Source: an uncultured Litoreibacter sp. (GTDB taxonomy: Bacteria; Pseudomonadota; Alphaproteobacteria; Rhodobacterales; Rhodobacteraceae). From it: DNA of 64,000 nucleotides. A program made the translations under genes and the position numbers. Positions 23,335 through 33,136 of this stretch are shown here, piece by piece (the stretch's first letter is position 1; each line of letters opens with the position of its first letter). The stretch lies in NCBI GenBank assembly GCA_947501685.1, contig CANMWQ010000001.1, positions 62,001 to 126,000 on the forward strand, written 5' to 3'. The notes beneath the pieces are model-generated. The model saw only the letters and a list, made by a program, of their open reading frames with translations, made no database searches and was not told where the DNA came from.

Positions 23335-23381
23335 TGGAGGCGAGTACGAGAATCGAACTCGTGTACACGGATTTGCAATCC
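23335..23381 (-). repeat. attL: displaced 3' half of tRNA-Cys, left direct repeat
   Basis: This 47-base segment matches 33063-33109 at 43 of 47 positions. It covers the encoded CCA end, acceptor 3' strand, T-arm, variable loop and anticodon region of tRNA-Cys, but the sequence beyond 23381 is not a tRNA 5' half, so it is not a functional gene. The last 21 bases (23361-23381) are identical to the right copy and must contain the crossover. The four differences are two compensated base pairs of the T-stem. Confidence 0.93.
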
Positions 23382-23420
23382 AGTGTATTTCTTCACAAAA
23401 ACAATTGCTTAGGGTCAAAA

Positions 23421-23463
23421 AAGTATCAGGACATTTGTCGAACAATAAACGAACCTGATACCC
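23421..23463. repeat. inverted repeat with TGATACCC motif near attL, candidate integrase arm site
   Basis: GTATCAGG at 23423-23430 and CCTGATAC at 23454-23461 form a perfect 8-base inverted repeat. The right arm extends to TGATACCC (23456-23463), which recurs twice near the right end (33008-33015 and 33020-33027). The position on both sides of the attachment core suggests arm-type binding sites for the integrase or excisionase. Confidence 0.5.
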
Positions 23464-23485
23464 ATGTTTTTGCTGGATCAAAGCC

Positions 23486-24358
23486 ATGAGTGGCATGGCG
23501 TTGATCTGGGCTGCGAACGTCAAAGGTCTCAAGCCCGCCGCCAAGATCGTGCTGATCCAACTGGCGGATTTTCACAACAAAGAAACGGGCCAATGCAACC
23601 CAAGCGCCCAGCGGTTGGCGGACGAATGCGAAATGGGCCGCGCCACGCTGTTTCGGCACATGACGACTTTGGAGGAGTGCGGCCTTGTCACCCGTCATGC
23701 CCGTGGGGATGGCGATGGCGGGCGCGGGTCCAATCAGTATGAGTTGCACCTCGATATTACACTCGGGCCGAGCGCACGTCCAAAGGGTGAGGGTGGCGGT
23801 CCTGTTGGGGTTGCGTCTCAAAATGAGACGGGGGGAAACGTCTCAAAAAAGCGGGGGAAAAGTCCCAAGGGTGAGACGGGGGTAGTCTCAAATCGGGACA
23901 GGAACCTTACCATTGAACCTAAGAAAGAACCGCCTTCGCGCGGGCGCGAGGCGGGGGAGGCTGAAAAGATTTTGGCTGCTTATCCGCCCGACCGGTTGCG
24001 GGGTAAAGCGGCCTGCCTTGTCCAGATCGAAGAGGCCATGAAGGAAGGGATCACGCCGGAGGACCTGCTGCAGGCCGTCCAGGCCTACGCGACCGACAGC
24101 GCAGGTTTCACCCGCTCCAAGGTCTGCTTTTCCGACAACTGGTTTCAGTCGCAGCGCTGGCGCGCTTACGTCGAAAAGCAGGCGGAAGACCGAGAGAAGG
24201 CGAAGGCGTTGGAGGTCGATCACCAAGCACGGTTGGCCTGCTGGATCAGTGATCGCAGCCCGATGTGCAAACACATCACGGCCAAGCAGATCGACGGATT
24301 GCTAGCCTCAAAGCTGGTGACACGGGCCCAAATCCAAGCCGCAGGCCTCAGAACATGA
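23486..24358 (+). CDS. helix-turn-helix replication-type protein of the element
   Basis: Protein of 290 aa. Residues 1-95 are a winged-helix domain (KPAAKIVLIQLADFHNKETG, then RLADECEMGRATLFRHMTTL and EECGLVTRHAR) like the N-terminus of plasmid and phage replication initiators. Residues 100-150 are a basic, Gly/Lys/Pro-rich linker. The C-terminal part (residues 155-290) contains SDNWFQSQRWRAYVEKQAED and may be DnaT/DnaD-like. A role in replication or in control of the mob genes is inferred. Its stop overlaps the mobC start (ATGA), so the two are co-translated. Confidence 0.7.
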   Translation: MSGMALIWAANVKGLKPAAKIVLIQLADFHNKETGQCNPSAQRLADECEMGRATLFRHMTTLEECGLVTRHARGDGDGGRGSNQYELHLDITLGPSARPKGEGGGPVGVASQNETGGNVSKKRGKSPKGETGVVSNRDRNLTIEPKKEPPSRGREAGEAEKILAAYPPDRLRGKAACLVQIEEAMKEGITPEDLLQAVQAYATDSAGFTRSKVCFSDNWFQSQRWRAYVEKQAEDREKAKALEVDHQARLACWISDRSPMCKHITAKQIDGLLASKLVTRAQIQAAGLRT

Positions 24359-24828
24359 CCAGCACCGGACCGACCGAAGCGCAAACAGCAAGGCGACCCA
24401 TGTCATACGCTGGCGCTGCTGACACGGGACCTTGCGAGGGGCGGCAAGCCTCCCCTTCGAACCCCACCGGCGCGGGAAAAGCCCGCACCAAAGAGCCGCT
24501 GACCGAGACCTTCGTCTTTCGGTGCACCGCCGCAGAGAAGGCCCAGTTGCGTGCTAAGGCCGAAGCCGCTGGTCTGCCCGCAGCGACCCTGCTGCGCGAG
24601 GCGCTTGGCCTGACCGAGGCCCGCCGCCGCAAGCCCGTGCCGCGCGTTGATCCGGCGCTCGTGCTGGCCGTCGGGCGCATCGGCGGCAACCTCAACCAGA
24701 TCGCCCGCTGGCTGAACCGCGCGATGCTGGCTGGCCGCATTGACCTAGACGCGCTCATCGTTGCCCGCCGGTTGCTGACAATCGAGCGCCAGCTTGCCCA
24801 GCTTGTCGAAGCGGCGCGTCGATGCTGA
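24355..24828 (+). CDS. mobC: MobC-like relaxosome accessory protein
   Basis: Protein of 157 aa started at the ATG overlapping the previous stop; an upstream in-frame ATG at 24265 lies inside the preceding gene. After a disordered N-terminus of about 45 residues it has TETFVFRCTAAEKAQLRAKA followed by AALLREALGL-like and VGRIGGNLNQIARWLNRAM, the pattern of the MobC/ribbon-helix-helix family that helps the relaxase open the transfer origin. The stop overlaps the relaxase start by seven bases. Confidence 0.85.
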   Translation: MTSTGPTEAQTARRPMSYAGAADTGPCEGRQASPSNPTGAGKARTKEPLTETFVFRCTAAEKAQLRAKAEAAGLPAATLLREALGLTEARRRKPVPRVDPALVLAVGRIGGNLNQIARWLNRAMLAGRIDLDALIVARRLLTIERQLAQLVEAARRC

Positions 24829-26345
24829 TCAAGTTTTTCCGCAATGGCAAAGGCGCGGGCGCGGGTCCGGTCGGCTACCTCGTCGCGGACAGGGTGCTGG
24901 CCTACGACGACAACCGCGACCTGATCCGTGATGCGGACGGCCAGCCAATGACCGTCACCCGCGAGCCTTTGCCCGAGGTCATGCGCGGCAATCCCGAGCG
25001 CACCGAAGCCCTGATCGACGCCAGCCGCCACCAATGGACCTACCGTGCTGGCGTTATCAGCTTTGCCGCCGAGGATGCCCCAACCGAAGAACAGCAGGCC
25101 GAGGTCATGGACGGGTTCGAGCGTCTGGCCTTCGCGGTGCTGGACCCGACGCAATATGAGGTGCTCTGGGTCCGACATACCCACGAAGACCGTGTCGAGC
25201 TTCACTTTTGCACGCCGCGCTTGGAGCTGACCTCGGGGCGGAGCCTGAACATTGCGCCACCGGGATACCAGAACGCCTTCGACAGCCTGCGCGACGTGAT
25301 GAACCAGCGCCACGGGTGGGCCGATCCGATGGAGTTGGAGCGCACCCAAGAGGTTCGCGACACCATCGAGACCCCAACCCGCGCCCAAGGCCGTGACGAG
25401 CTGCATGCATGGCTGCAAGACCAGATCAGCGTCGGCCTGATCACTGACCGCGCCAGCATGCTCGACGCCCTCACAGACGCGGGCTTTGACATCCCACGCG
25501 CGGGCAAAGCCTACCTAACCGCCCAAGATCCCGACACCGGCGAGCGCTGGCGTTTGAAAGGAGACATTTTCCATGAAGACTGGCAAGCCGACCCGGCTGA
25601 GCGAGAAGTTGAACGCGGAACTGGACACGATCCGGCAGGACTACGCCGCCTCGATGGCATCCCAACTGGAGAGCTTCAAAACCGATTTGAACAGCATTGC
25701 GACCATCGCGCAGCGTACAATCGAGAGCGATACCCGCACCTTTCTGCGACAGAACAAGAGCTGGCTGACGATCTCGCCCTGGCTGATAATGGGGACGTTC
25801 TTGGTGGGGATCGTCTCGATGATGGCCGCGAGCTTGCTTTGGACGCTGATGCTGGCCAGCTCAGAACTGACGGAGTTGGGCCTGACGCGGATCGACAGGG
25901 AGGACGGGACCTGGCTGGTGCTGGACCCGACCAAGACGCGCCTGAGGACCTGCACGCTGGGCGGCAGATCAGTGACCTGCATCAAGATCGAGGAGGACTA
26001 GATGACGACACCCCTGACAGCCTTGGAACGCGACTTGCTCGCCTGCGTCGAGCGGTTGGTGACAGCCTGCGAGGTCTCAGCAAAGGAATTGAGCGGGTTA
26101 GAGGCACGCTCGACGACCAAGATGCAGAGCCAGATGGATGGATTGGCCGCCTGCGTGTCGGTGCTCATTCAATCGCAAACGGCGTCCGTGGCTGCGTTGC
26201 ACGGCTTGTTGAGCGAGGGCTCGAACTACGGGAAGCTGCGCACGCAACTCGAGACCAGCTTGAAATTAGTGAAAGCCGCCGAAGAGAGGTTGAGACAGAG
26301 CTAGAAGAGCGAGAGGTCGAGATGGACCGAGGGATGACGCATTGA
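24822..26345 (+). CDS. mobA: MobA-type relaxase with disordered C-terminal half
   Basis: Conjugative-mobilization relaxase, 507 aa. The nuclease domain is in residues 1-200: Tyr in GPVGYLVADR near residue 19 is a candidate catalytic residue, and HTHEDRVELHF near residues 119-129 supplies metal-binding histidines. Residues 250-490 are strongly biased to Asp, Arg and Gly with little hydrophobic core, and this is just where two other genes lie in the +1 frame, so the composition is probably an overprinting effect. It would nick the element at its transfer origin in trans-mobilization. The domain assignment is by motif only. Confidence 0.85.
   Translation: MLIKFFRNGKGAGAGPVGYLVADRVLAYDDNRDLIRDADGQPMTVTREPLPEVMRGNPERTEALIDASRHQWTYRAGVISFAAEDAPTEEQQAEVMDGFERLAFAVLDPTQYEVLWVRHTHEDRVELHFCTPRLELTSGRSLNIAPPGYQNAFDSLRDVMNQRHGWADPMELERTQEVRDTIETPTRAQGRDELHAWLQDQISVGLITDRASMLDALTDAGFDIPRAGKAYLTAQDPDTGERWRLKGDIFHEDWQADPAEREVERGTGHDPAGLRRLDGIPTGELQNRFEQHCDHRAAYNRERYPHLSATEQELADDLALADNGDVLGGDRLDDGRELALDADAGQLRTDGVGPDADRQGGRDLAGAGPDQDAPEDLHAGRQISDLHQDRGGLDDDTPDSLGTRLARLRRAVGDSLRGLSKGIERVRGTLDDQDAEPDGWIGRLRVGAHSIANGVRGCVARLVERGLELREAAHATRDQLEISESRRREVETELEEREVEMDRGMTH
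25573..26001 (+). CDS. mobB: MobB-like membrane protein nested in the relaxase gene
   Basis: A 142-aa frame lying entirely inside the relaxase gene, one base ahead in frame. A strong ribosome binding site (AAAGGAGA, 25557-25564) stands eight bases before the ATG, inside relaxase codons. The protein has an amphipathic N-terminus, then one or two membrane helices (residues about 68-98, SPWLIMGTFLVGIVSMMAAS and following), and a soluble tail with RTCTLGGRSVTCIK. In plasmid RSF1010 the membrane protein MobB is likewise encoded inside mobA in another frame, so equivalence is likely, though sequence similarity was not tested. Confidence 0.78.
   Translation: MKTGKPTRLSEKLNAELDTIRQDYAASMASQLESFKTDLNSIATIAQRTIESDTRTFLRQNKSWLTISPWLIMGTFLVGIVSMMAASLLWTLMLASSELTELGLTRIDREDGTWLVLDPTKTRLRTCTLGGRSVTCIKIEED
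26002..26304 (+). CDS. small helical protein nested in the relaxase gene
   Basis: A 100-aa frame starting immediately after the mobB-like stop (TAG then ATG) with AGGAGG at 25991-25996 five bases upstream. It stays in the same +1 frame inside the relaxase. The sequence is mostly helical and soluble, with AVSVLIQSQ-like and KLRTQLETSLKLVKAAEERL coiled-coil segments. No family recognised. Its tight coupling to the mobB-like gene suggests a shared role in mobilization. Confidence 0.65.
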   Translation: MTTPLTALERDLLACVERLVTACEVSAKELSGLEARSTTKMQSQMDGLAACVSVLIQSQTASVAALHGLLSEGSNYGKLRTQLETSLKLVKAAEERLRQS

Positions 26346-26360
26346 GGGGGGAAATTCGAT

Positions 26361-26384
26361 TGACATATGGTAACGTATATGTCA
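26361..26384. promoter_or_regulatory. inverted-repeat operator before the toxin-antitoxin pair
   Basis: TGACATAT (26361-26368) and ATATGTCA (26377-26384) are perfect 8-base arms around an 8-base spacer, just upstream of the toxin. TTGACA at 26360-26365 could be a -35 element overlapping the left arm. Autorepression by the antitoxin is the usual logic and is inferred here. Confidence 0.6.
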
Positions 26385-26387
26385 CCA

Positions 26388-26726
26388 ATGGTCGCAATGA
26401 ATAAGCTTGTTGTCTATGTCACTGAGGCGGGGAAAACACCGTTCGACGATTGGTTCAATGGTCTGGATACGGCGGCGGCATTGAAGGTCAGAACCGCACT
26501 TGCACGGATCGAGACCGGAAACCTTGGCGACGTGAAGCCAGTTGGGCAGGGCGTGTCAGAGCGGCGCATCACCTTCGGCCCCGGCTACCGCGTCTATTTT
26601 GGCAAGGACGGCGATACGCTTGTGATCCTGCTTTGTGGTGGGACTAAGAAGCGCCAATCAAAGGACATAGAGCAGGCCAAAGCATATTGGGACGACTACA
26701 AAGCCCGCAAAGAGAAAGGCGACTGA
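26388..26726 (+). CDS. RelE/ParE-family toxin, addiction-module killer type
   Basis: Toxin of 112 aa from the ATG at 26388 (or 109 aa from 26397). The frame extends to 26367 but that start would sit in the operator. The pattern matches the HI1419-type killer family: an N-terminal VTEAGKTPFDDWFNGL, then LARIETGNLGDVKPVGQGVS, ERRITFGPGYRVYFGKDGDT and LVILLCGGTKKRQSKDIEQA. Family members are usually mRNA interferases. The antitoxin follows after one base, the reverse order seen in higBA-type pairs. Probably stabilises the element. Confidence 0.88.
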   Translation: MVAMNKLVVYVTEAGKTPFDDWFNGLDTAAALKVRTALARIETGNLGDVKPVGQGVSERRITFGPGYRVYFGKDGDTLVILLCGGTKKRQSKDIEQAKAYWDDYKARKEKGD

Positions 26727-26727
26727 G

Positions 26728-27057
26728 ATGCCACTGACCAAAGATTTCAAAGACACGATCAAAGCCCGCGCTGAGCGCGATCCTGAGTTTCGGGCGGGGT
26801 TGTTCCGCGAAGCCATCGAAGCGATGCTGAGCGACGATCTTGAGACCGGCAAGGTGCTGCTGCGCGACTACGTCAACGCCACTGTGGGGTTTGAGGCCTT
26901 GGCGTTAGACATGGACAAAGACCCCAAGAGCCTGATGCGTATGCTCAGCGCCAAGGGCAATCCGCGCGCGGATAATTTGCTGGCCATGGTTGCCCACCTG
27001 AAGCTGCGCGAGGGCGTGTCTTTTTCAATCGCCACAAACAATAGTCTGATTGAGTAG
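26728..27057 (+). CDS. antitoxin of the HI1420/HigA-like type
   Basis: Protein of 109 aa placed directly after the toxin. It has an N-terminal helical part (DPEFRAGLFREAIEAMLSDD and ETGKVLLRDYVNATVGF) and a C-terminal helix-turn-helix (ALDMDKDPKSLMRMLSAKGN then NLLAMVAHLKLREGV), the layout of addiction-module antidote proteins that neutralise the toxin and bind their own operator. The last residues differ from the usual ending. Transcribed toward the convergent nuclease gene. Confidence 0.83.
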   Translation: MPLTKDFKDTIKARAERDPEFRAGLFREAIEAMLSDDLETGKVLLRDYVNATVGFEALALDMDKDPKSLMRMLSAKGNPRADNLLAMVAHLKLREGVSFSIATNNSLIE

Positions 27058-27163
27058 AGTTGGGCTAAACTAGACTATGCTCGGTCAAGTCCCTTAGCTT
27101 ACGAACAATTGTCGGACTGTCGATGCATTGGAACTAGAGAATTTGCCAGCAAAACGCCTGAAA

Positions 27164-28366
27164 TCAATACAGCTCTCGCCGACGCTGAAGGTATTCGATT
27201 TTGGGCGGATGAGAGGTGGGAGCGACAAGCTTTGTCCCATCAAACTTCTGCAGTGCTTCCTTTAGCTTGTGGTCCTCACCAACCTTTTCCCAGTTAACCG
27301 TAACGGTAGAGTCATCAGCAATGATTAAGCATCCTATTTCGAATGCTCGATCCACTAGAACAGATAAGCAGATTCCGTTGGAGGGGTCTAGTCGGATTGT
27401 TTCGTCTACGCTCCAAGGCACGATGTGCGAGGCTATAAGGAATTCCCGTGTGCTAATGCCTGTCAACGCACAACGATGGCCGTAATTCTGTTTGACGGCA
27501 TTTGCGAACACCCTCTGAGCACTACCGCGGGTCTTAACCGTCGCGCTGGTATCAGAGACTTCATAACTTCCGATTTCCAAGCTCTTTTCGAAGGCAGAGA
27601 TTTCTTCGTTCGAGAGTGGGGATGCCTCCGCCGAAGCGTCGCTGTCTATGCCAGAAGCAGGCGGCAGATGGGCAGGCCAAATTGATTCTTGATCTGCTGC
27701 GTCGGTAGCCTTTGCATTCCATGGATCGGTTTTTCTACTTGGATCGAAATAAAGACTCGCTTCGTTTTTATCTGAAGAGAACAACTTCCAAGCCAGAGCT
27801 GAGTTTTGCGATGTGCTGGCCGCCAAGTCTTGGATCGATTGAGGTGCCATATCCAAAGATGCCCATTCAAAGCCATTGCTTGGCGTGTCGATGTGAACGC
27901 GCAAGTGGATCTTTTGGGTTTCATTCCGAAGCTTAACTGCTACCAAAAAAGGCTGCCCAAAGTCTGACGCAGCCAACTTGGCGAATTCCTCATCAGCGGC
28001 AGCCGCTGTGGTAAGCTCAGGGTCACCGAGTATGGTTTCCACTGTAAATTCAGATGGATGCAGTGACATCTTCCATGGAGGGGGCGCGCTATTGGTTTCC
28101 CAAGCTAAGTGAGGCCGATCTGCTGATCGTCTGAACAGCTTTCCCATTGCCGATCCCGAAGGCCACTGAAATTTTATCGCAATTGATTCCTTTCCCCCCG
28201 AGATCTCTGGAAATGCGGATTCCAAGTCGCTTATGAAACCCTCCTTCCTCGACAGTTGGATGTAGTCCTTTGTGTAGGTTTGTCCTGGCAAGCGCCCATA
28301 GGTGGCTCGATGAGCTGACTTCCCATAGTGTACGACCAAGACCCATTCGACCTGCTGCATCATCAT
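27164..28366 (-). CDS. HNH endonuclease-domain protein, candidate restriction enzyme
   Basis: Protein of 400 aa in a low-G+C stretch. The C-terminal 100 residues are an HNH_2-type nuclease: [40 protein letters not shown] and [16 protein letters not shown], with the His of ASHI, the Asn of SNG and the Asp/Arg after it. The N-terminal 290 residues contain no domain I recognise and may hold DNA-specificity functions. Its ATG overlaps the stop of the adenine methylase by four bases (ATGA), so they are translated together, as in restriction-modification pairs. Confidence 0.8.
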
Positions 28367-29271
28367 TTAGGCCGCCCAATTACAATGGCTTCGGGAGATT
28401 TATGAGACTCCACTTCTCGCCGGCTTTGGGCTGCAAGAGCACGATGAGCTTTGAAACTCACTATTTCGTTCCCAGGGAACAATTCACGGACGCCTTCGGT
28501 ATCGCGGTTCGACATTATCCAGTTTACACCGCGTGTACTCAGGTCTTGGCAAATCTCGGCCAGGTCGATCAAGTCAGGTAGCTCAAAGGTCTTGGCGGTA
28601 TATTTGTTGAATTTGGCCGTAGGCTCTTTTTCAATCGTAGGTTTAGAAAAAATGGGTAGGTATGGCGGATCAAGGTATACAAAATCACCCTCCTTAGCTT
28701 TTGTGACTAGCTGTCGAAAATCACATTGCAGAATATTTGCACCATCAAGAGTGCGAGCAATCCCCCTTAGATCTGAGTCGCTAAAGCCTCTAAATTTTCG
28801 ATCGCCCCAAGGTGCATTCATCGCGCCAGTCTTGGAGTTTTCACGCCACAAATGGTTCCAAGAGACGCCATTCAGATAAAGGAAGCGAGCCGCTTTTTCC
28901 AGGTCATTTGTTGGGACCGTAGCTCGAACTTCATAGTAAAATTCTTTTCCGTCATTTTCGAGATACCAATCTAGTAGCGGCTTCAATCCCTCTGGATTGT
29001 CTCGCAGCGCTACCCAGGCTGACACAAGGTGGCCATTGAGGTCGGCTAAGTTAGCACGGCCTGTGATCTTTGGTCTGCAAGCAAGAAAAACAGCTCCGCC
29101 TCCCAAGAAAGGTTCGTAGTAGTCTCGAATAGTCTCAGGTACGTGGGGCAGAATACGTGGTAGCAGCCGCGTCTTGCCGCCCACCCAACGCACAAAAGGC
29201 TTCCGGAGCATTTCCGTTTCTGGGGCCAAAGTGGGGTCTTCCGTTACAATATCACTGGAGTTTCTGCTCAT
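28363..29271 (-). CDS. DNA adenine methyltransferase, D12 (Dam-like) class
   Basis: N6-adenine DNA methyltransferase of 302 aa. The S-adenosylmethionine pocket is seen as [17 protein letters not shown] and [15 protein letters not shown], and the catalytic motif IV as [13 protein letters not shown]. This order is the alpha class to which Dam and M.DpnII belong. The recognition site cannot be read from sequence; GATC is only a guess from class. It is divergent from the second methyltransferase across 93 bases and overlaps the HNH gene, so it is probably the cognate protector. Confidence 0.92.
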
Positions 29272-29364
29272 TTGATCTTAAACTTTTCGCAAGGTTGCGA
29301 AGAGCGCGGCGAACGCGCTGCATACACTTTTCGGCAAGGATTCTTCCTTAGTTATCGGGGCTAC
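29272..29364. promoter_or_regulatory. divergent promoter region of the two methyltransferases
   Basis: This 93-base gap separates two divergent methyltransferase genes. The forward open frame runs through it, but the 31 residues it would add are not family-like, and GGGG at 29357-29360 precedes the ATG at 29365. No clear operator seen. Confidence 0.4.
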
Positions 29365-30681
29365 ATGGCAGAAGTTACACTAAATTGGAAGAACAAGGAC
29401 TTGGTCTTGCTGGCGTCCGGCGCTCGAGCGTATGAGTGGATCGAGCCGTCTGACAGCATTCTCAATGAGGCTCCGGACCTACACAGCATCAGCGGGGATG
29501 AGCCACTTCGTTCATCAAATGTTCTCGCTATCGGCGATGGCGCGGACGTTTTGGCGGCTCTGTCTAGCCAGACGGATGTGCTCGAAGACAAAATCCGTCT
29601 CGTGTACATTGATCCGCCATACAACACGAATGCTGATGTGCGCTCTTATGACGACGCCTTGGATCGTTCTAAATGGCTAAGCATGCTCCGCGACCGGCTG
29701 CTTGCCTTGCAGCCGCACTTGTCAGACGACGCAAGTATCTGGGTGCATCTTGATGACGCCGAGGTTCATCGTGCGCGATTGGTGATGGACGAAGTGTTTG
29801 GAGAAGGGGCCTTTGTGTCATCAATTATCTGGCAAAAACGAACGACAAGGGAGTCCCGGACGGCGTTTTCAAACAACCATGACACAATATTGGTATATGC
29901 ACCAAGCGGACCCAAGAAATGGAAGACTTCTAGAAACTTACTGGAAAAAGACAATGCGCATCTAAAGAACAGGGACGACGATCCGCGTGGCCCTTGGGCG
30001 GATGCACCTTTCACGGCTCCAGGATATCGAGCTGCGCAGCAATATCCGATCGAAACGCCGTCGGGGGATATCTTGAAGCCACCTAGGGGCAGATCATGGT
30101 ACGCTACTGAACCAACCTATCGGCAGCTATTGGCGGAAGATAGGATTTGGTTTCCCAAAAATGGAGCCGGTTCGCCAAGAATAAAGCTCTTCAGTCATCA
30201 ATTGAGAGGTTTGGTGCCGTTTACGATTTGGGGAACCGCCGAAACTGGCACAAATGATGATGCTAAGCGTCATCTGATGGCACTCTTTCCTGAATCTGCA
30301 GTCTTTGACACTCCAAAGCCTGAAGAACTTCTGGAGCGGATCATTCATGTTGCCAGCAAGCCTGGTGAGCTGGTGGTGGATTTGTTTGGAGGGAGCGGCA
30401 CAACCGCAGCAACTGCTCACAAAATGAGACGCCGCTGGATTTTGGTTGAGCGTAGTCACAGCACATTTGAACGTTTCACCCTCCCTAGGCTTCAGGCCGT
30501 GGTAAATGGTGTCGATCCAAATGGGATTACACAACAGGCCAATTGGGTAGGTGGCGGCGGTTTTGAGGCAGTTTATGTGCCCCCTCGACTTGGGAGGACT
30601 TTGACAAAGAAGAGGCTCTCAGAGTTGGAGCAGTTTGTTTCTAAAGGACGGGCGGGCAACATGGTGTTTTCTGCGGGCTAA
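29365..30681 (+). CDS. site-specific DNA methyltransferase, beta class (type III Mod-like)
   Basis: DNA methyltransferase of 438 aa with motif IV first (RLVYIDPPYNTNADVRSYDD near residues 89-108) and motif I late (ELVVDLFGGSGTTAATAHKM), the beta-class order. The DPPY motif fits amino-group methylation of adenine or cytosine-N4. HTH-like insert KRHLMALFPESAVFDTPKPE and WILVERSHSTFERFTLPRL follow. It is shorter than true type III Mod (about 600 aa), and no Res helicase is present. Its place beside a Dam-like enzyme and nuclease recalls DpnII-type systems with two methylases. Confidence 0.87.
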   Translation: MAEVTLNWKNKDLVLLASGARAYEWIEPSDSILNEAPDLHSISGDEPLRSSNVLAIGDGADVLAALSSQTDVLEDKIRLVYIDPPYNTNADVRSYDDALDRSKWLSMLRDRLLALQPHLSDDASIWVHLDDAEVHRARLVMDEVFGEGAFVSSIIWQKRTTRESRTAFSNNHDTILVYAPSGPKKWKTSRNLLEKDNAHLKNRDDDPRGPWADAPFTAPGYRAAQQYPIETPSGDILKPPRGRSWYATEPTYRQLLAEDRIWFPKNGAGSPRIKLFSHQLRGLVPFTIWGTAETGTNDDAKRHLMALFPESAVFDTPKPEELLERIIHVASKPGELVVDLFGGSGTTAATAHKMRRRWILVERSHSTFERFTLPRLQAVVNGVDPNGITQQANWVGGGGFEAVYVPPRLGRTLTKKRLSELEQFVSKGRAGNMVFSAG

Positions 30682-30763
30682 TTGCTCTTTGTTCTGACTG
30701 GAACGTCGTTTTTCGATGTCGGCTATTTGCTGTTAAGGCTTGGTCACTGACAACTTCAACTTA

Positions 30764-31033
30764 CTACTCTTCGCCGTAGAAATAGAACTTGCGTTGGGAG
30801 ACGTCGCTGTTTGTGAGCAGGATTTTCCAAAGAGCTTCGCCGATACCCGCGAAGATGCCACCTGCAACGCCAAGGTGAAGCAGGAACAGAGTGTAGATGT
30901 CCCAAAAGTGGCCTGTTTCAGAGCGGTAGGAGATGAAGCCAACGCTGGTAACCACCAGTAGGACAATCCCCATCACGCGCAAAGAATTGGCGAATTTGTT
31001 GATTGGCGTCTTAGGATCTTTCAAATGTTTCAT
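30764..31033 (-). CDS. small two-helix membrane protein of the element
   Basis: Started at the ATG at 31031-31033 it encodes 89 aa; a longer frame only reads the tail of the regulator gene. The protein has a basic N-terminus (MKHLKDPKTPINKF), a first membrane helix (VMGIVLLVVTSVGFISY), a short loop and a second helix (LFLLHLGVAGGIFAGIGEAL), then a polar tail ending FYFYGEE. No family recognised. It starts 13 bases after the XRE regulator stop, so the two form an operon. Confidence 0.65.
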   Translation of the reverse strand: MKHLKDPKTPINKFANSLRVMGIVLLVVTSVGFISYRSETGHFWDIYTLFLLHLGVAGGIFAGIGEALWKILLTNSDVSQRKFYFYGEE

Positions 31034-31046
31034 CGGGTTGTCCGCC

Positions 31047-31472
31047 TTAGCCAATGGCCGAAAAGAACAGCTTTGCCTCGCTTTGCGGCGAGGTGCCCTT
31101 CGAAAGGGCTTGCTCAAAGATGTAGTGGGTAAATTTTTGTATTTCCGCGCTGGAAAACGTCCTCTTGTTCGTCTGCGCGTGATCAAACACAGCCTGCGCG
31201 GTTTCCCCAGCTAAACGAGCGGACTGCTCGCTGTCAGGCACGGAGTTTCCATACACCAGCCACATGAGGTTCTTGTCGAATTCTTCGCAAAACTTGACTG
31301 CGATCGAGAGCGGCAGCTCCCGTTTTTCAAGCTCATAATTCTTGTAAGATTTGTCAGCGATCCCCAGGATCGCTGCGACTTTGTTTTGAGGATAGCCGAG
31401 CTGACTGCGCACACTCAGCATCCTTTGGCCGATTCCAATCAATACAGTTGACATTCGGACAAATGTTCCCAT
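31047..31472 (-). CDS. XRE-family helix-turn-helix regulator of the element
   Basis: DNA-binding protein of up to 141 aa (ATG at 31470-31472; 135 aa from 31454). The N-terminal HTH reads MLSVRSQLGYPQNKVAAILG then IADKSYKNYELEKRELPLSI, a standard phage-repressor-type fold, followed by a helical tail that may mediate dimerisation. It is divergent from the excisionase-integrase operon, with an inverted repeat between them, the arrangement of a lysogeny-type repressor of excision. Confidence 0.88.
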   Translation of the reverse strand: MGTFVRMSTVLIGIGQRMLSVRSQLGYPQNKVAAILGIADKSYKNYELEKRELPLSIAVKFCEEFDKNLMWLVYGNSVPDSEQSARLAGETAQAVFDHAQTNKRTFSSAEIQKFTHYIFEQALSKGTSPQSEAKLFFSAIG

Positions 31473-31481
31473 ATCTGGACT

Positions 31482-31502
31482 TACGTAACCTTTTGTTGCG
31501 TA
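31482..31502. promoter_or_regulatory. inverted-repeat operator between XRE regulator and excisionase genes
   Basis: TACGTAAC (31482-31489) and GTTGCGTA (31495-31502) form an inverted repeat with seven of eight pairs around a 5-base spacer. The left arm lies within the palindrome TTACGTAA. The position in the 72-base divergent gap suggests a binding site for the XRE protein. Confidence 0.55.
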
Positions 31503-31544
31503 TTCTTCCTATTGATATCACTAAATGCCAAAGAGGAAAGAACT

Positions 31545-31751
31545 ATGGACGATTGTTCCCTGCTTACCCCGAGAGAATTGGCAGCTCATAGCGGCTGGCC
31601 TGAGAAGCGGATCAGGAAGTTGATAGCCACCAGAAGCATTCGATTCCTCAAGAACGGGACTAATTTTCTACTGCCGCAGGACGCGGTTCAGGACTACATC
31701 GCGCGGAATATGGTGGAACCTGACGAGCGTTCGGGCGCGAGCAAGCCATGA
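31545..31751 (+). CDS. excisionase/AlpA-like small HTH protein
   Basis: Protein of 68 aa started at the ATG at 31545, which follows an AGAGGAAAG ribosome binding site (31532-31540); the frame is open upstream without support. The helix-turn-helix runs LTPRELAAHSGWPEKRIRKL followed by a wing with RFLKNGTNFLLPQDAVQDYI, the pattern of MerR-like excisionases. It overlaps the next small gene (ATGA). Probably a directionality factor for the integrase. Confidence 0.75.
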   Translation: MDDCSLLTPRELAAHSGWPEKRIRKLIATRSIRFLKNGTNFLLPQDAVQDYIARNMVEPDERSGASKP

Positions 31752-31963
31752 GCCGGGCAGGGCAAACACCCATCATGGCCAGCGAGACGACCGCCGCGCG
31801 ATTGCTCGATTTGCGCACGAACGAGTTCAAGGCTTTGGTCGATGAAGGTCACCTTCCGCCCGGGCATGAAATTGCACCGGGCATTGTTCGTTGGGATACT
31901 GAAACGCTCAAGCGGATTTCAGGTGGAGATGTGACAGGGCTATGGGATCAAATTCAGTGGTAG
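31748..31963 (+). CDS. second small HTH-like protein upstream of the integrase
   Basis: Protein of 71 aa with a predicted helix-turn-helix (ETTAARLLDLRTNEFKALVD) and a wing region (HEIAPGIVRWDTETLKRISG), similar in style to the preceding excisionase-like protein. It overlaps both neighbours: four bases with the upstream gene and 22 bases with the integrase start. Function unknown; a role in excision control is inferred from position. Confidence 0.6.
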   Translation: MSRAGQTPIMASETTAARLLDLRTNEFKALVDEGHLPPGHEIAPGIVRWDTETLKRISGGDVTGLWDQIQW

Positions 31964-32976
31964 GCCGACGCAAGAAATACCTTTGGCAGCATCCATCTGG
32001 CCGTTGGTATGTGCGCAAGAGCGTCAACGGCAAGATGTTCTATCTGGGGCGTATCACGGCAGAAGAAGGTACGGCAGAGTTTGATCAGCAGTACTGGGAG
32101 ATCGTCAGCGGGAAGAAAGCGGGTTCCAAGACGTCATGGGGGGCTTTGATTGACGCTCTGCGTGAGACCGACAAATGGAAGGATTTTTCGCCCCGCTATC
32201 GGCGCGACCTTGAACAAGTTTTTGAGTATCTGACCGAAAAGATAGGACGCGCTGACGTGGCACGCCTGACCCAAGCCGACATTTACGACGCCATGGAAAA
32301 GAACCGCCATCGCGTACGGTTCGCCAACTACATTCCGACCGCGATCAGCATGTTATCCAAAATGGCGATGCGCAAGCGCTGGCGCAAAGACAATCCCGCT
32401 ATTGATATCGAGCCGTTGAGAGTTCCGAAGGACCGCAAGAAACCGCATTTGCCGTGGACAGATTGGGCGGTCGAAAAGATGCGGGAAGAGGGTGCGCCAT
32501 TGCCTCGCCTGATTTTTGAGATTGGCGTGGGGAGTGTGCAGCGTCCTGGTGACTGGGTTGACTTCCAATGGGGCGACTATGACGGCGATACCCTCAAGTT
32601 GCGGCAGAACAAGACAGATACTTTTCTTTCACTGCCCTGCACGATTGCGCTCAAGGCCGCACTGGACAGCGCAAAGGCCGATCTGGGATTCGCGCCGCAC
32701 CCATCGCGCCACATCCTGACGCGCGCTGATGGTTCGAAGATGGACTACCATGCAATGGCCCGCGTCATGGTGCGCGAACGTAAGCGGTTAGGCCTGATGG
32801 CCTATGACCAACACGCCTTGCGGTATCGCGGCGTGATGGAATTGGCGTGGGCGGGCTGCACGGACGATGAAATCGCCAGCTACAGCGGTCACACATCCAA
32901 GGAGATGATCATCAAATATGCGGGGGAGGCCCGTCAGATCATGCGTGCGCGACAGGCGGCAGCAAAGCGCAAATGA
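31942..32976 (+). CDS. int: tyrosine-family integrase of the element
   Basis: Site-specific recombinase of 344 aa. The catalytic domain shows the first Arg in GVGSVQRPGDWVDFQW, the HxxR box in DQHALRYRGVMELAW, the His of SYSGHTSKEM and the nucleophilic Tyr in IIKYAGEARQIM. The N-terminus has an AP2-like arm-binding segment (WQHPSGRWYVRKSVNGKMFY). It lies at the right end, 87 bases from the tRNA-Cys, as expected for an enzyme that uses the tRNA as attachment site. Confidence 0.95.
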   Translation: MGSNSVVGRRKKYLWQHPSGRWYVRKSVNGKMFYLGRITAEEGTAEFDQQYWEIVSGKKAGSKTSWGALIDALRETDKWKDFSPRYRRDLEQVFEYLTEKIGRADVARLTQADIYDAMEKNRHRVRFANYIPTAISMLSKMAMRKRWRKDNPAIDIEPLRVPKDRKKPHLPWTDWAVEKMREEGAPLPRLIFEIGVGSVQRPGDWVDFQWGDYDGDTLKLRQNKTDTFLSLPCTIALKAALDSAKADLGFAPHPSRHILTRADGSKMDYHAMARVMVRERKRLGLMAYDQHALRYRGVMELAWAGCTDDEIASYSGHTSKEMIIKYAGEARQIMRARQAAAKRK

Positions 32977-33007
32977 TCCCGAACAGAACAAGCACAGAAC
33001 GAGAAAC

Positions 33008-33027
33008 TGATACCCGAGGTGATACCC
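33008..33027 (+). repeat. paired TGATACCC direct repeats near attR, candidate arm sites
   Basis: TGATACCC occurs at 33008-33015 and 33020-33027, twelve bases apart, between the integrase stop and the tRNA. The same octamer lies near the left end at 23456-23463. In the circular form the copies would flank the attachment core on both sides. Confidence 0.5.
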
Positions 33028-33062
33028 AATGAGCAGAGAAATTCATAACCCATTGATTTTAT

Positions 33063-33136
33063 TGGAGGCGAGTACCGGAATCGAACCGGTGTACACGGAT
33101 TTGCAATCCGCTGCGTCACCACTCCGCCAACTCGCC
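33063..33136 (-). tRNA. tRNA-Cys (GCA), attR
   Basis: The 74-base gene on the minus strand folds with acceptor GGCGAGT pairing ACTCGCC, discriminator T, encoded CCA, and a T-arm ACCGG-TTCGATT-CCGGT. The anticodon GCA is at 33102-33104 within TTGCAAA. It is the intact copy; its 3' half is repeated at 23335-23381. Because the 5' half lies on the chromosomal side and the 3' half on the element side, the present gene is probably a chimera of host and element sequence. Confidence 0.96.

What the first reader, a model, noticed from the sequence alone, without database searches (positions are those of the whole stretch)
23335..33136. Element in tRNA-Cys has replaced the host tRNA 3' half, with two compensated T-stem pairs
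The displaced left copy and the intact tRNA differ at just four of 47 positions (23348, 23349, 23359, 23360 against 33076, 33077, 33087, 33088). These four are two T-stem base pairs, C-G to G-C and G-C to A-T, so each version still pairs. The 5' half of the gene lies on the chromosome side and the 3' half on the element side. If crossover was in the identical 21-base block, the working tRNA-Cys now carries the element's T-arm and the original host T-arm is stranded at the left end. That suggests the element came from a different species and edits a tRNA that is probably unique in the genome.
Basis: partly seen in the sequence, partly recalled or inferred. Interest (0 to 1): 0.75.

Follow-up and report, generated by a model that had tools for sequence, protein, structure and literature searches.

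The report
Mobile element swapped half a tRNA
A small mobile DNA element has inserted into a marine bacterium's cysteine tRNA gene and replaced its second half with its own version, which differs by two still-paired base pairs; this is a known type of event, seen here unusually clearly.

Summary
Confirmed. The left copy (23335-23381) and the 3' half of tRNA-Cys (33063-33136, minus strand) differ at four of 47 positions: T-stem pairs 51-63 and 52-62, paired in both versions. Between them lies a roughly 9.7-kb integrative mobilizable element. Joining the chromosomal 5' half to the left copy gives a tRNA-Cys identical at 74 of 74 bases to that of the nearest relative with a readable gene, G018; the present gene differs at four. 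The rival, crossover near the acceptor end, is disfavoured: six of six viral contigs with one shared chromosomal flank keep GGAG in the stranded copy beside differing elements, and the one that also shows the rebuilt tRNA has CCGG there. tRNA-Cys is the only cysteine tRNA among 39 found. Qualification: the element's CCGG T-arm is the commonest allele in the genus (14 of 18 relatives), so the swap put back the common version. Element-borne tRNA halves with differences are in print (phage Boilgate, PMC10865867), so this is a new member of a known kind. Block switching of T-stem alleles across the family is the better lead.

The parts
33063..33136 (-). Working tRNA-Cys (GCA): 5' half from the chromosome, 3' half (33063 to the crossover) from the element; T-stem ACCGG/CCGGT
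   Evidence: ARAGORN; comparison with relatives
23335..23381 (-). Displaced host 3' half of tRNA-Cys with T-stem ACGAG/CTCGT
   Evidence: T-arm identical to that of the tRNA and stranded copy of G018
33089..33109 (-). 21-base identical block inferred to hold the crossover; it contains the 7-base anticodon loop TTTGCAA (33100-33106)
   Evidence: partial copies found by blastn in other genomes begin at the loop or up to five bases before it
23361..23381 (-). The same 21-base block in the displaced copy (anticodon-loop part 23372-23378)
31942..32976 (+). Tyrosine integrase (344 aa)
   Evidence: Pfam PF00589, (PF22022 also matches, just under its cut-off); relatives
31512..31751 (+). Excisionase-like DNA-binding protein (79 aa)
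   Evidence: NCBIfam TIGR01764, just over its cut-off
31748..31963 (+). Small ORF next to the integrase, no family match
31047..31472 (-). XRE-type regulator
   Evidence: Pfam HTH_19/HTH_3
29272..30681 (+). N6/N4 DNA methyltransferase, type III-like (cargo); start codon uncertain
   Evidence: Pfam PF01555; PADLOC MTase_III
28363..29271 (-). Dam-family adenine methyltransferase (cargo)
   Evidence: TIGR00571; PADLOC MTase_II
27164..28366 (-). HNH restriction-type endonuclease (cargo)
   Evidence: Pfam HNH_2; PADLOC HNH
26367..27057 (+). RelE/HigB-type toxin gene (26367-26726) and a following small gene, probably its antitoxin (inference from position)
   Evidence: TIGR02683; the second gene has no match
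24822..26345 (+). Relaxase (MbeA/MobA-like)
   Evidence: Pfam PF03432 just over its cut-off; best NCBIfam match relax_MbeA far below its cut-off
24265..24828 (+). NikA-like/MobC mobilization protein
   Evidence: Pfam PF21983 and PF05713
23486..24358 (+). HTH_36 protein, possibly replication-initiator-like (inference)
   Evidence: Pfam PF13730

Best explanation
An integrative mobilizable element of about 9.7 kb recombined its attP with the only tRNA-Cys gene. Its tyrosine integrase exchanged strands inside the block around the anticodon loop. The tRNA now starts as host and ends as element: everything 3' of the crossover, including the whole T-arm, came from the element. The host's own 3' half (T-stem ACGAG/CTCGT) was pushed to the far end of the element. 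Both T-stems pair because each was selected in a working tRNA. Shown: the four differences; the 74/74 match of the rebuilt empty site with the sister species; one tRNA-Cys among 39 tRNAs; close relatives of the element in other genera. Inferred: the exact strand-exchange points, excision that restores the old allele, and any effect on EF-Tu binding.
For:: the empty site rebuilt from 5' half plus left copy equals G018's tRNA-Cys at 74/74 bases; the current gene differs at 4. G018 is the nearest relative with a readable tRNA-Cys (DnaE 97%; G000+G018 support 95, with G019 100). G018's own stranded copy, beside a different element, is also CGAG; the chromosomal flanks of the two stranded copies share CGGGTCTTC and a nearby GAAA just before the copy; six of six viral contigs with one chromosomal flank carry GGAG in the stranded copy although at least two clearly different element ends follow it; in the one contig that also shows the rebuilt tRNA (43,558 bp) that tRNA is CCGG. 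(blastn, not bound to a fixed boundary): long partial copies in relatives begin at the anticodon loop or up to five bases before it; conserved mobilization end (0-3.7 kb) and integrase end (8.4-9.8 kb) in other genera, variable middle; one tRNA-Cys among 39 tRNAs.
Against: 14 of 18 genus relatives with a readable tRNA-Cys have CCGG, among them the next nearest ones G017, G006, G020 and G005, so by outgroups alone CCGG would be called native. G019, also very close (DnaE 96%), gave no tRNA-Cys match in its 57%-complete assembly. No element-free sister genome is available: G018 has its own element at the site. Among ten loci with at least 94% integrase identity and a readable integrase-end copy, nine are CCGG and one (L127) is CGAG, so the element-linked allele is not perfectly constant. 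The boundary evidence is weaker than it looks: my pattern scans require a match up to the anticodon loop, and the E-value limit would miss short copies left by acceptor-side crossovers.
Confidence: 0.88

Rival explanations
1. Crossover near the acceptor end. The integrase cut 3' of the T-arm, the tRNA kept its host CCGG T-arm and the left copy carries the element's CGAG T-arm.
For: CCGG is the commonest allele in the genus and in the nearest outgroups. An identical 13-base block also exists on that side.
Against: The sister species has CGAG in both its tRNA and its stranded copy beside a different element. Six contigs of one host keep GGAG at the chromosome side beside differing elements. Long partial copies reach the anticodon loop, which this model does not need.
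Confidence: 0.07
2. Earlier element. The stranded CGAG is not the ancestral host allele but the 3' half left by an older element that integrated in the ancestor of G000 and G018 and was later lost. (This is compatible with the best explanation for the last insertion; its confidence is counted apart.)
For: Arrays with mixed alleles exist (G103, G149, G110). The outgroups are CCGG, so CGAG was probably gained on this branch.
Against: No integrase by two queries in 5.3 kb left of the copy in G000 or 6.5 kb in G018.
Confidence: 0.3
3. Decay or gene conversion after insertion: the left copy mutated once it was released from selection.
For: Some copies elsewhere do show damage (a broken pair in G285; an altered T-loop in G103 L147).
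Against: Both changes are compensated, and the result equals the tRNA of the sister species.
Confidence: 0.02

Closest known systems
Genomic islands in tRNA genes with anticodon-centred sites (Islander, PMC4383910; Williams 2002, recalled)
   Same: Regenerated tRNA plus displaced 3' fragment mark the ends; tyrosine integrase; crossover in the anticodon region, the class 'A' of Islander (passages read)
   Different: The passages read do not treat sequence differences between regenerated gene and fragment as an allele swap
Mycobacteriophage Boilgate at tRNA-Lys(TTT) (PMC10865867, passages read)
   Same: attP carries the tRNA 3' half with five single-base differences over 43 bp and still gives a functional tRNA at attL; the same phenomenon
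   Different: Phage, mycobacterial tRNA-Lys; differences seen by comparing attP with attB, not both versions in one natural genome checked against a sister species
Pyrococcus yayanosii island PYG1 at tRNA-Gln (PMC9897764, passages read)
   Same: Partial and complete tRNA copies flank the island as 44-bp repeats with a 1-bp difference
   Different: Archaeal; one difference, not two compensated stem pairs
tRNA-dependent lysogeny (PMC10865867, passages read)
   Same: Integration at an essential single-copy tRNA gene
   Different: There the tRNA is not rebuilt and the phage supplies a whole tRNA; here it is rebuilt and ARAGORN finds no tRNA inside the element

Membership tests
Integrative element/genomic island in a tRNA gene | Complete tRNA at one end, displaced 3' fragment in the same orientation at the other | tested here: met
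Integrative element/genomic island in a tRNA gene | Tyrosine-recombinase integrase within the interval | tested here: met
   PF00589 in 31942-32976
Integrative element/genomic island in a tRNA gene | Excision as a circle with attP | not testable with these tools
   no reads or PCR; an excisionase-like gene is present
Integrative mobilizable element (IME) | Relaxase/mobilization genes | tested here: met
   NikA-like/MobC and a relaxase domain; the MbeA model is far below its curated cut-off
Integrative mobilizable element (IME) | No own conjugation (type IV secretion) apparatus | tested here: met
   no such family among the element proteins scanned; some small unmatched or unscanned ORFs remain
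Integrative mobilizable element (IME) | oriT and transfer with a helper | not tested
   no oriT search was run
Anticodon-loop attachment site (Islander class A) | Crossover in the anticodon-loop region | tested here: met
   The differences leave only the 21-base block once the acceptor side is disfavoured; exact cleavage points not shown
tRNA-dependent lysogeny | tRNA not rebuilt and a complete element-borne tRNA of the same isotype | tested here: not met
   tRNA rebuilt; no tRNA inside the element

The most novel reading that the evidence does not exclude
Mobile elements and temperate phages are the main vehicles by which the T-stem of tRNA-Cys changes in Rhodobacteraceae. Three allele blocks (CCGG, CGAG, GGAG) are carried on attP sites and swapped whole into hosts, in more than one direction, so that an essential single-copy tRNA, including the EF-Tu-tuning pair 51-63, evolves by cassette exchange rather than by stepwise compensatory mutation.
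Probability: 0.4. Interest if true: 0.62.

Novelty: new member of a known kind. Interest (0 to 1): 0.38.

Why it matters
It shows in a natural genome, checked against a sister species, that an integrating element does not only restore an essential tRNA gene: it can rewrite its second half with a foreign, internally compensated version. tRNA sequences are commonly treated as vertically inherited and slowly changing (own knowledge). If the family-wide block switching is driven by elements, tRNA-Cys in this family is partly horizontally inherited. Element carriage would then change a base pair (51-63) that is reported to tune binding to EF-Tu (review PMC11231383, passages read).

Tried and rejected
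Arrays as host-allele evidence: G103 and G141 looked useful, but one search found a further integrase left of their leftmost visible copy, so I do not use them as host-allele evidence. G101 (Oceaniglobus indicus, ggag stranded, CCGG tRNA) and G102 (Octadecabacter dasysiphoniae, ccgg stranded, GGAG tRNA) are mismatched too, but their nearest relatives are mixed and do not decide.

Cobavirus idea: I suspected that the phage contigs with a tRNA-Cys piece were cobaviruses. The cobavirus paper (PMC6775973, passages) reports no tRNAs and no genes indicating a temperate life style, so I dropped the name.

Control tRNAs: looked for T-stem changes in tRNA-His and tRNA-Gln in 45 genomes. Only 25 and 19 genomes matched the patterns, so the control is partial and biased towards conserved sequences.

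Search for a free form: the integrase has no close match in the plasmid collection (best 69%, Pseudorhodobacter turbinis). The 97-base tRNA-end query gave, in the 20 rows listed of 208 phage and of 65 plasmid records, matches that span all or nearly all of the tRNA gene rather than an attP half. I did not search the phage collection with the integrase.

Papers: one search found no paper, and the listings showed none about tRNA alleles swapped by elements; one search listed the paper with phage Boilgate.
Full report
What is there. The working tRNA-Cys(GCA) lies at 33063-33136 on the minus strand. A 47-base copy of its 3' half lies at 23335-23381 in the same orientation. On the tRNA strand these are pairs 51-63 and 52-62 of the T-stem; the stem is ACCGG/CCGGT in the working gene and ACGAG/CTCGT in the left copy, fully paired in both. 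The four differences leave a 21-base identical block with the anticodon loop (33100-33106) on one side and a 13-base block at the tRNA 3' end on the other.

The element. Between the copies lie an HTH_36 protein, a NikA-like/MobC protein, a relaxase, a RelE/HigB-type toxin with a probable antitoxin, an HNH endonuclease, a Dam-family and a type III-like DNA methyltransferase, an XRE regulator, an excisionase-like protein and a tyrosine integrase. No conjugation apparatus was seen among the proteins scanned, so it looks like an integrative mobilizable element. The genome scan for integrase relatives gave 36 loci, among them Oceaniglobus indicus and a Roseovarius MAG (99% identity), Shimia (97%), and Marivita and Tateyamaria (94%). 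In loci with both ends in view, such as L092, L096 and L097, the mobilization end (first 3.7 kb) and the integrase end (last 1.4 kb) are conserved while the middle, with the restriction-type genes, differs. Of the 36 loci, 33 show a readable tRNA-Cys copy at the integrase end (32, L093): 26 CCGG, 4 GGAG, 3 CGAG. Three (L120, L122, L126) gave none; L120 keeps about 20 bases of the copy.

Is the T-arm of the working tRNA the element's? Nearest relative: of 20 other genomes of the genus, 18 have a full tRNA-Cys. 14 are CCGG (G011 by 100% identity, the rest read), three GGAG (G001, G010, G012) and one CGAG (G018). G013 has only the 5' part and G019 gave no match. G018 is the closest of those 18: DnaE 97%, PCMT 90%, flanking DNA 81-83%. 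The DnaE tree of 49 taxa joins it to G000. Joining the chromosomal 5' half to the left copy gives a tRNA identical to G018's at 74 of 74 bases; the present gene differs at four. G018 carries a different element at the same site, and its stranded copy is also CGAG. Just before the stranded copies the chromosomal flanks of G000 and G018 share CGGGTCTTC and GAAA.

Crossover on the anticodon side or the acceptor side? If it were on the acceptor side, the left copy would be the element's. A pattern scan of IMG/VR gave 53 stretches with a tRNA-Cys 3' half. Six of them (L306, L312, L320, L323, L331, L342) share one chromosomal left flank (only 28 bases available for L323; 160-187 matching bases between the others; about 96-100% identical). 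All six have GGAG in the stranded copy, while the DNA inserted behind it differs: L312 is clearly unlike the rest, L320 and L331 are one element, and the others resemble each other only over about the first 90-100 bases. The L312 prophage (one 43,558-bp contig, other end L324) has CCGG in its rebuilt full tRNA. So in that host the chromosome-side copy is the host's and the T-arm of the rebuilt tRNA is the element's, as proposed here. The long partial copies that blastn found in relatives begin at the anticodon loop or up to five bases before it, which fits strand exchange at the anticodon loop, the class 'A' sites of Islander (PMC4383910, passages). That boundary evidence has a limit: short copies would have been missed, and the pattern scans require a match up to the loop.

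Uniqueness. An Rfam tRNA search of the genome (16 contigs, 99% complete) found 39 tRNAs. Of these, 30 were typed with ARAGORN and one is tRNA-Cys; the other nine, not typed apart from the tRNA-Leu in the window, are 81-87 bases long, as expected of Leu/Ser class II tRNAs. So this tRNA-Cys is very probably the only one.

How general is it? Other loci where a stranded copy and the full tRNA carry different T-stems: G101 (Oceaniglobus indicus), G102 (Octadecabacter dasysiphoniae), G103 (Lentibacter algarum, array), G110 (Antarctobacter heliothermus, on separate contigs), G141 and G149 (array). G330 has two copies 14 kb apart with different stems; which one is the full gene was not checked. In the family scan 284 of 394 genomes matched, and the listing was cut. 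Among the listed multi-copy genomes I saw by eye only G330 and G510 (the same genome as G110, by coordinates) with different intact stems; in the other listed ones the stems agreed or one was damaged. So mismatched pairs are a minority.

Block switching. On the DnaE tree, for the 44 taxa with a full tRNA-Cys, the gene varies at only 11 of 74 columns and six of these are T-stem pairs 50-52/62-64. The T-stem takes four states (CCGG 31, GGAG 10, CGAG 2, TCGG 1) with at least eight changes; CCGG differs from GGAG by three pairs and from CGAG by two, and CGAG from GGAG by one. Against a special role of the 3' half: the 5' half, which the elements do not carry, changes seven times, and one D-loop position alone changes six times. 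As a partial control, the same T-stem pairs in tRNA-His were alike in 23 of 25 matching genomes with two single-pair variants, and in tRNA-Gln in 19 of 19. Of 45 genomes, 20 and 26 did not match the control patterns and are not scored. This is suggestive of block import, not proof.

Novelty. Phage Boilgate's attP carries a tRNA-Lys 3' half with five differences over 43 bp that still gives a functional tRNA (PMC10865867, passages). The event is therefore known. New here are the natural case with a sister-species match, the single-copy tRNA-Cys, and the hint that T-stem alleles of this tRNA travel on elements and phages across a bacterial family. The listings of searches showed no paper on that; the library holds open-licence papers only.

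Effect. The review PMC11231383 (passages) states that pairs 49:65, 50:64 and 51:63 set tRNA affinity for EF-Tu. The swap changes pair 51-63 (G-C to C-G) and 52-62. Whether this matters in the cell is untested. Since CCGG is the commonest allele in this genus, a strong cost is unlikely (inference).

Noticed in passing
L302:4450-4535; similar in L294, L298, L300, L311, L318, L319, L321, L325, L328, L333, L334, L337, L338: 14 viral contigs carry a tRNA-Cys 3' half (CCGG) that is followed by part of the 5' side and then other DNA; in L302 it stands between inverted flanks and the contig also encodes what looks by eye like a T7-type RNA polymerase, a tyrosine integrase and an amidase. They look like temperate podoviruses with attP at tRNA-Cys.
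   Followed up: partly
L057:6200-10470: In the sister genome G018 a betaine/proline-type ABC transporter operon (by eye) lies between the FAD oxidoreductase gene and the stranded copy; in the window the stranded copy follows that oxidoreductase after about 75 bases.
   Followed up: no
window 27164-30681: The variable middle of the element holds an HNH endonuclease, a Dam-like and a type III-like methyltransferase: a possible restriction-modification or defence cargo slot between conserved ends.
   Followed up: partly
L186 (G155) and L147 (G103): tRNA-Cys partial copies lie 2.2 Mb from the tRNA gene (G155) or on another contig than the tRNA locus (G103); they may be rearranged or secondary-site insertions that could show attP directly.
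   Followed up: no
L057:11746-13896: The element of G018 at the same tRNA-Cys carries a large protein that looks by eye like an OLD-type ATPase, possibly a defence gene.
   Followed up: no
plasmid hits H22-H24, outside the window: Three plasmid records (Rhodobacteraceae bacterium M382, Alisedimentitalea scapharcae, Pacificitalea manganoxidans) hold a 100% match to the whole window tRNA-Cys gene; plasmid-borne complete copies could be another route of allele exchange.
   Followed up: no
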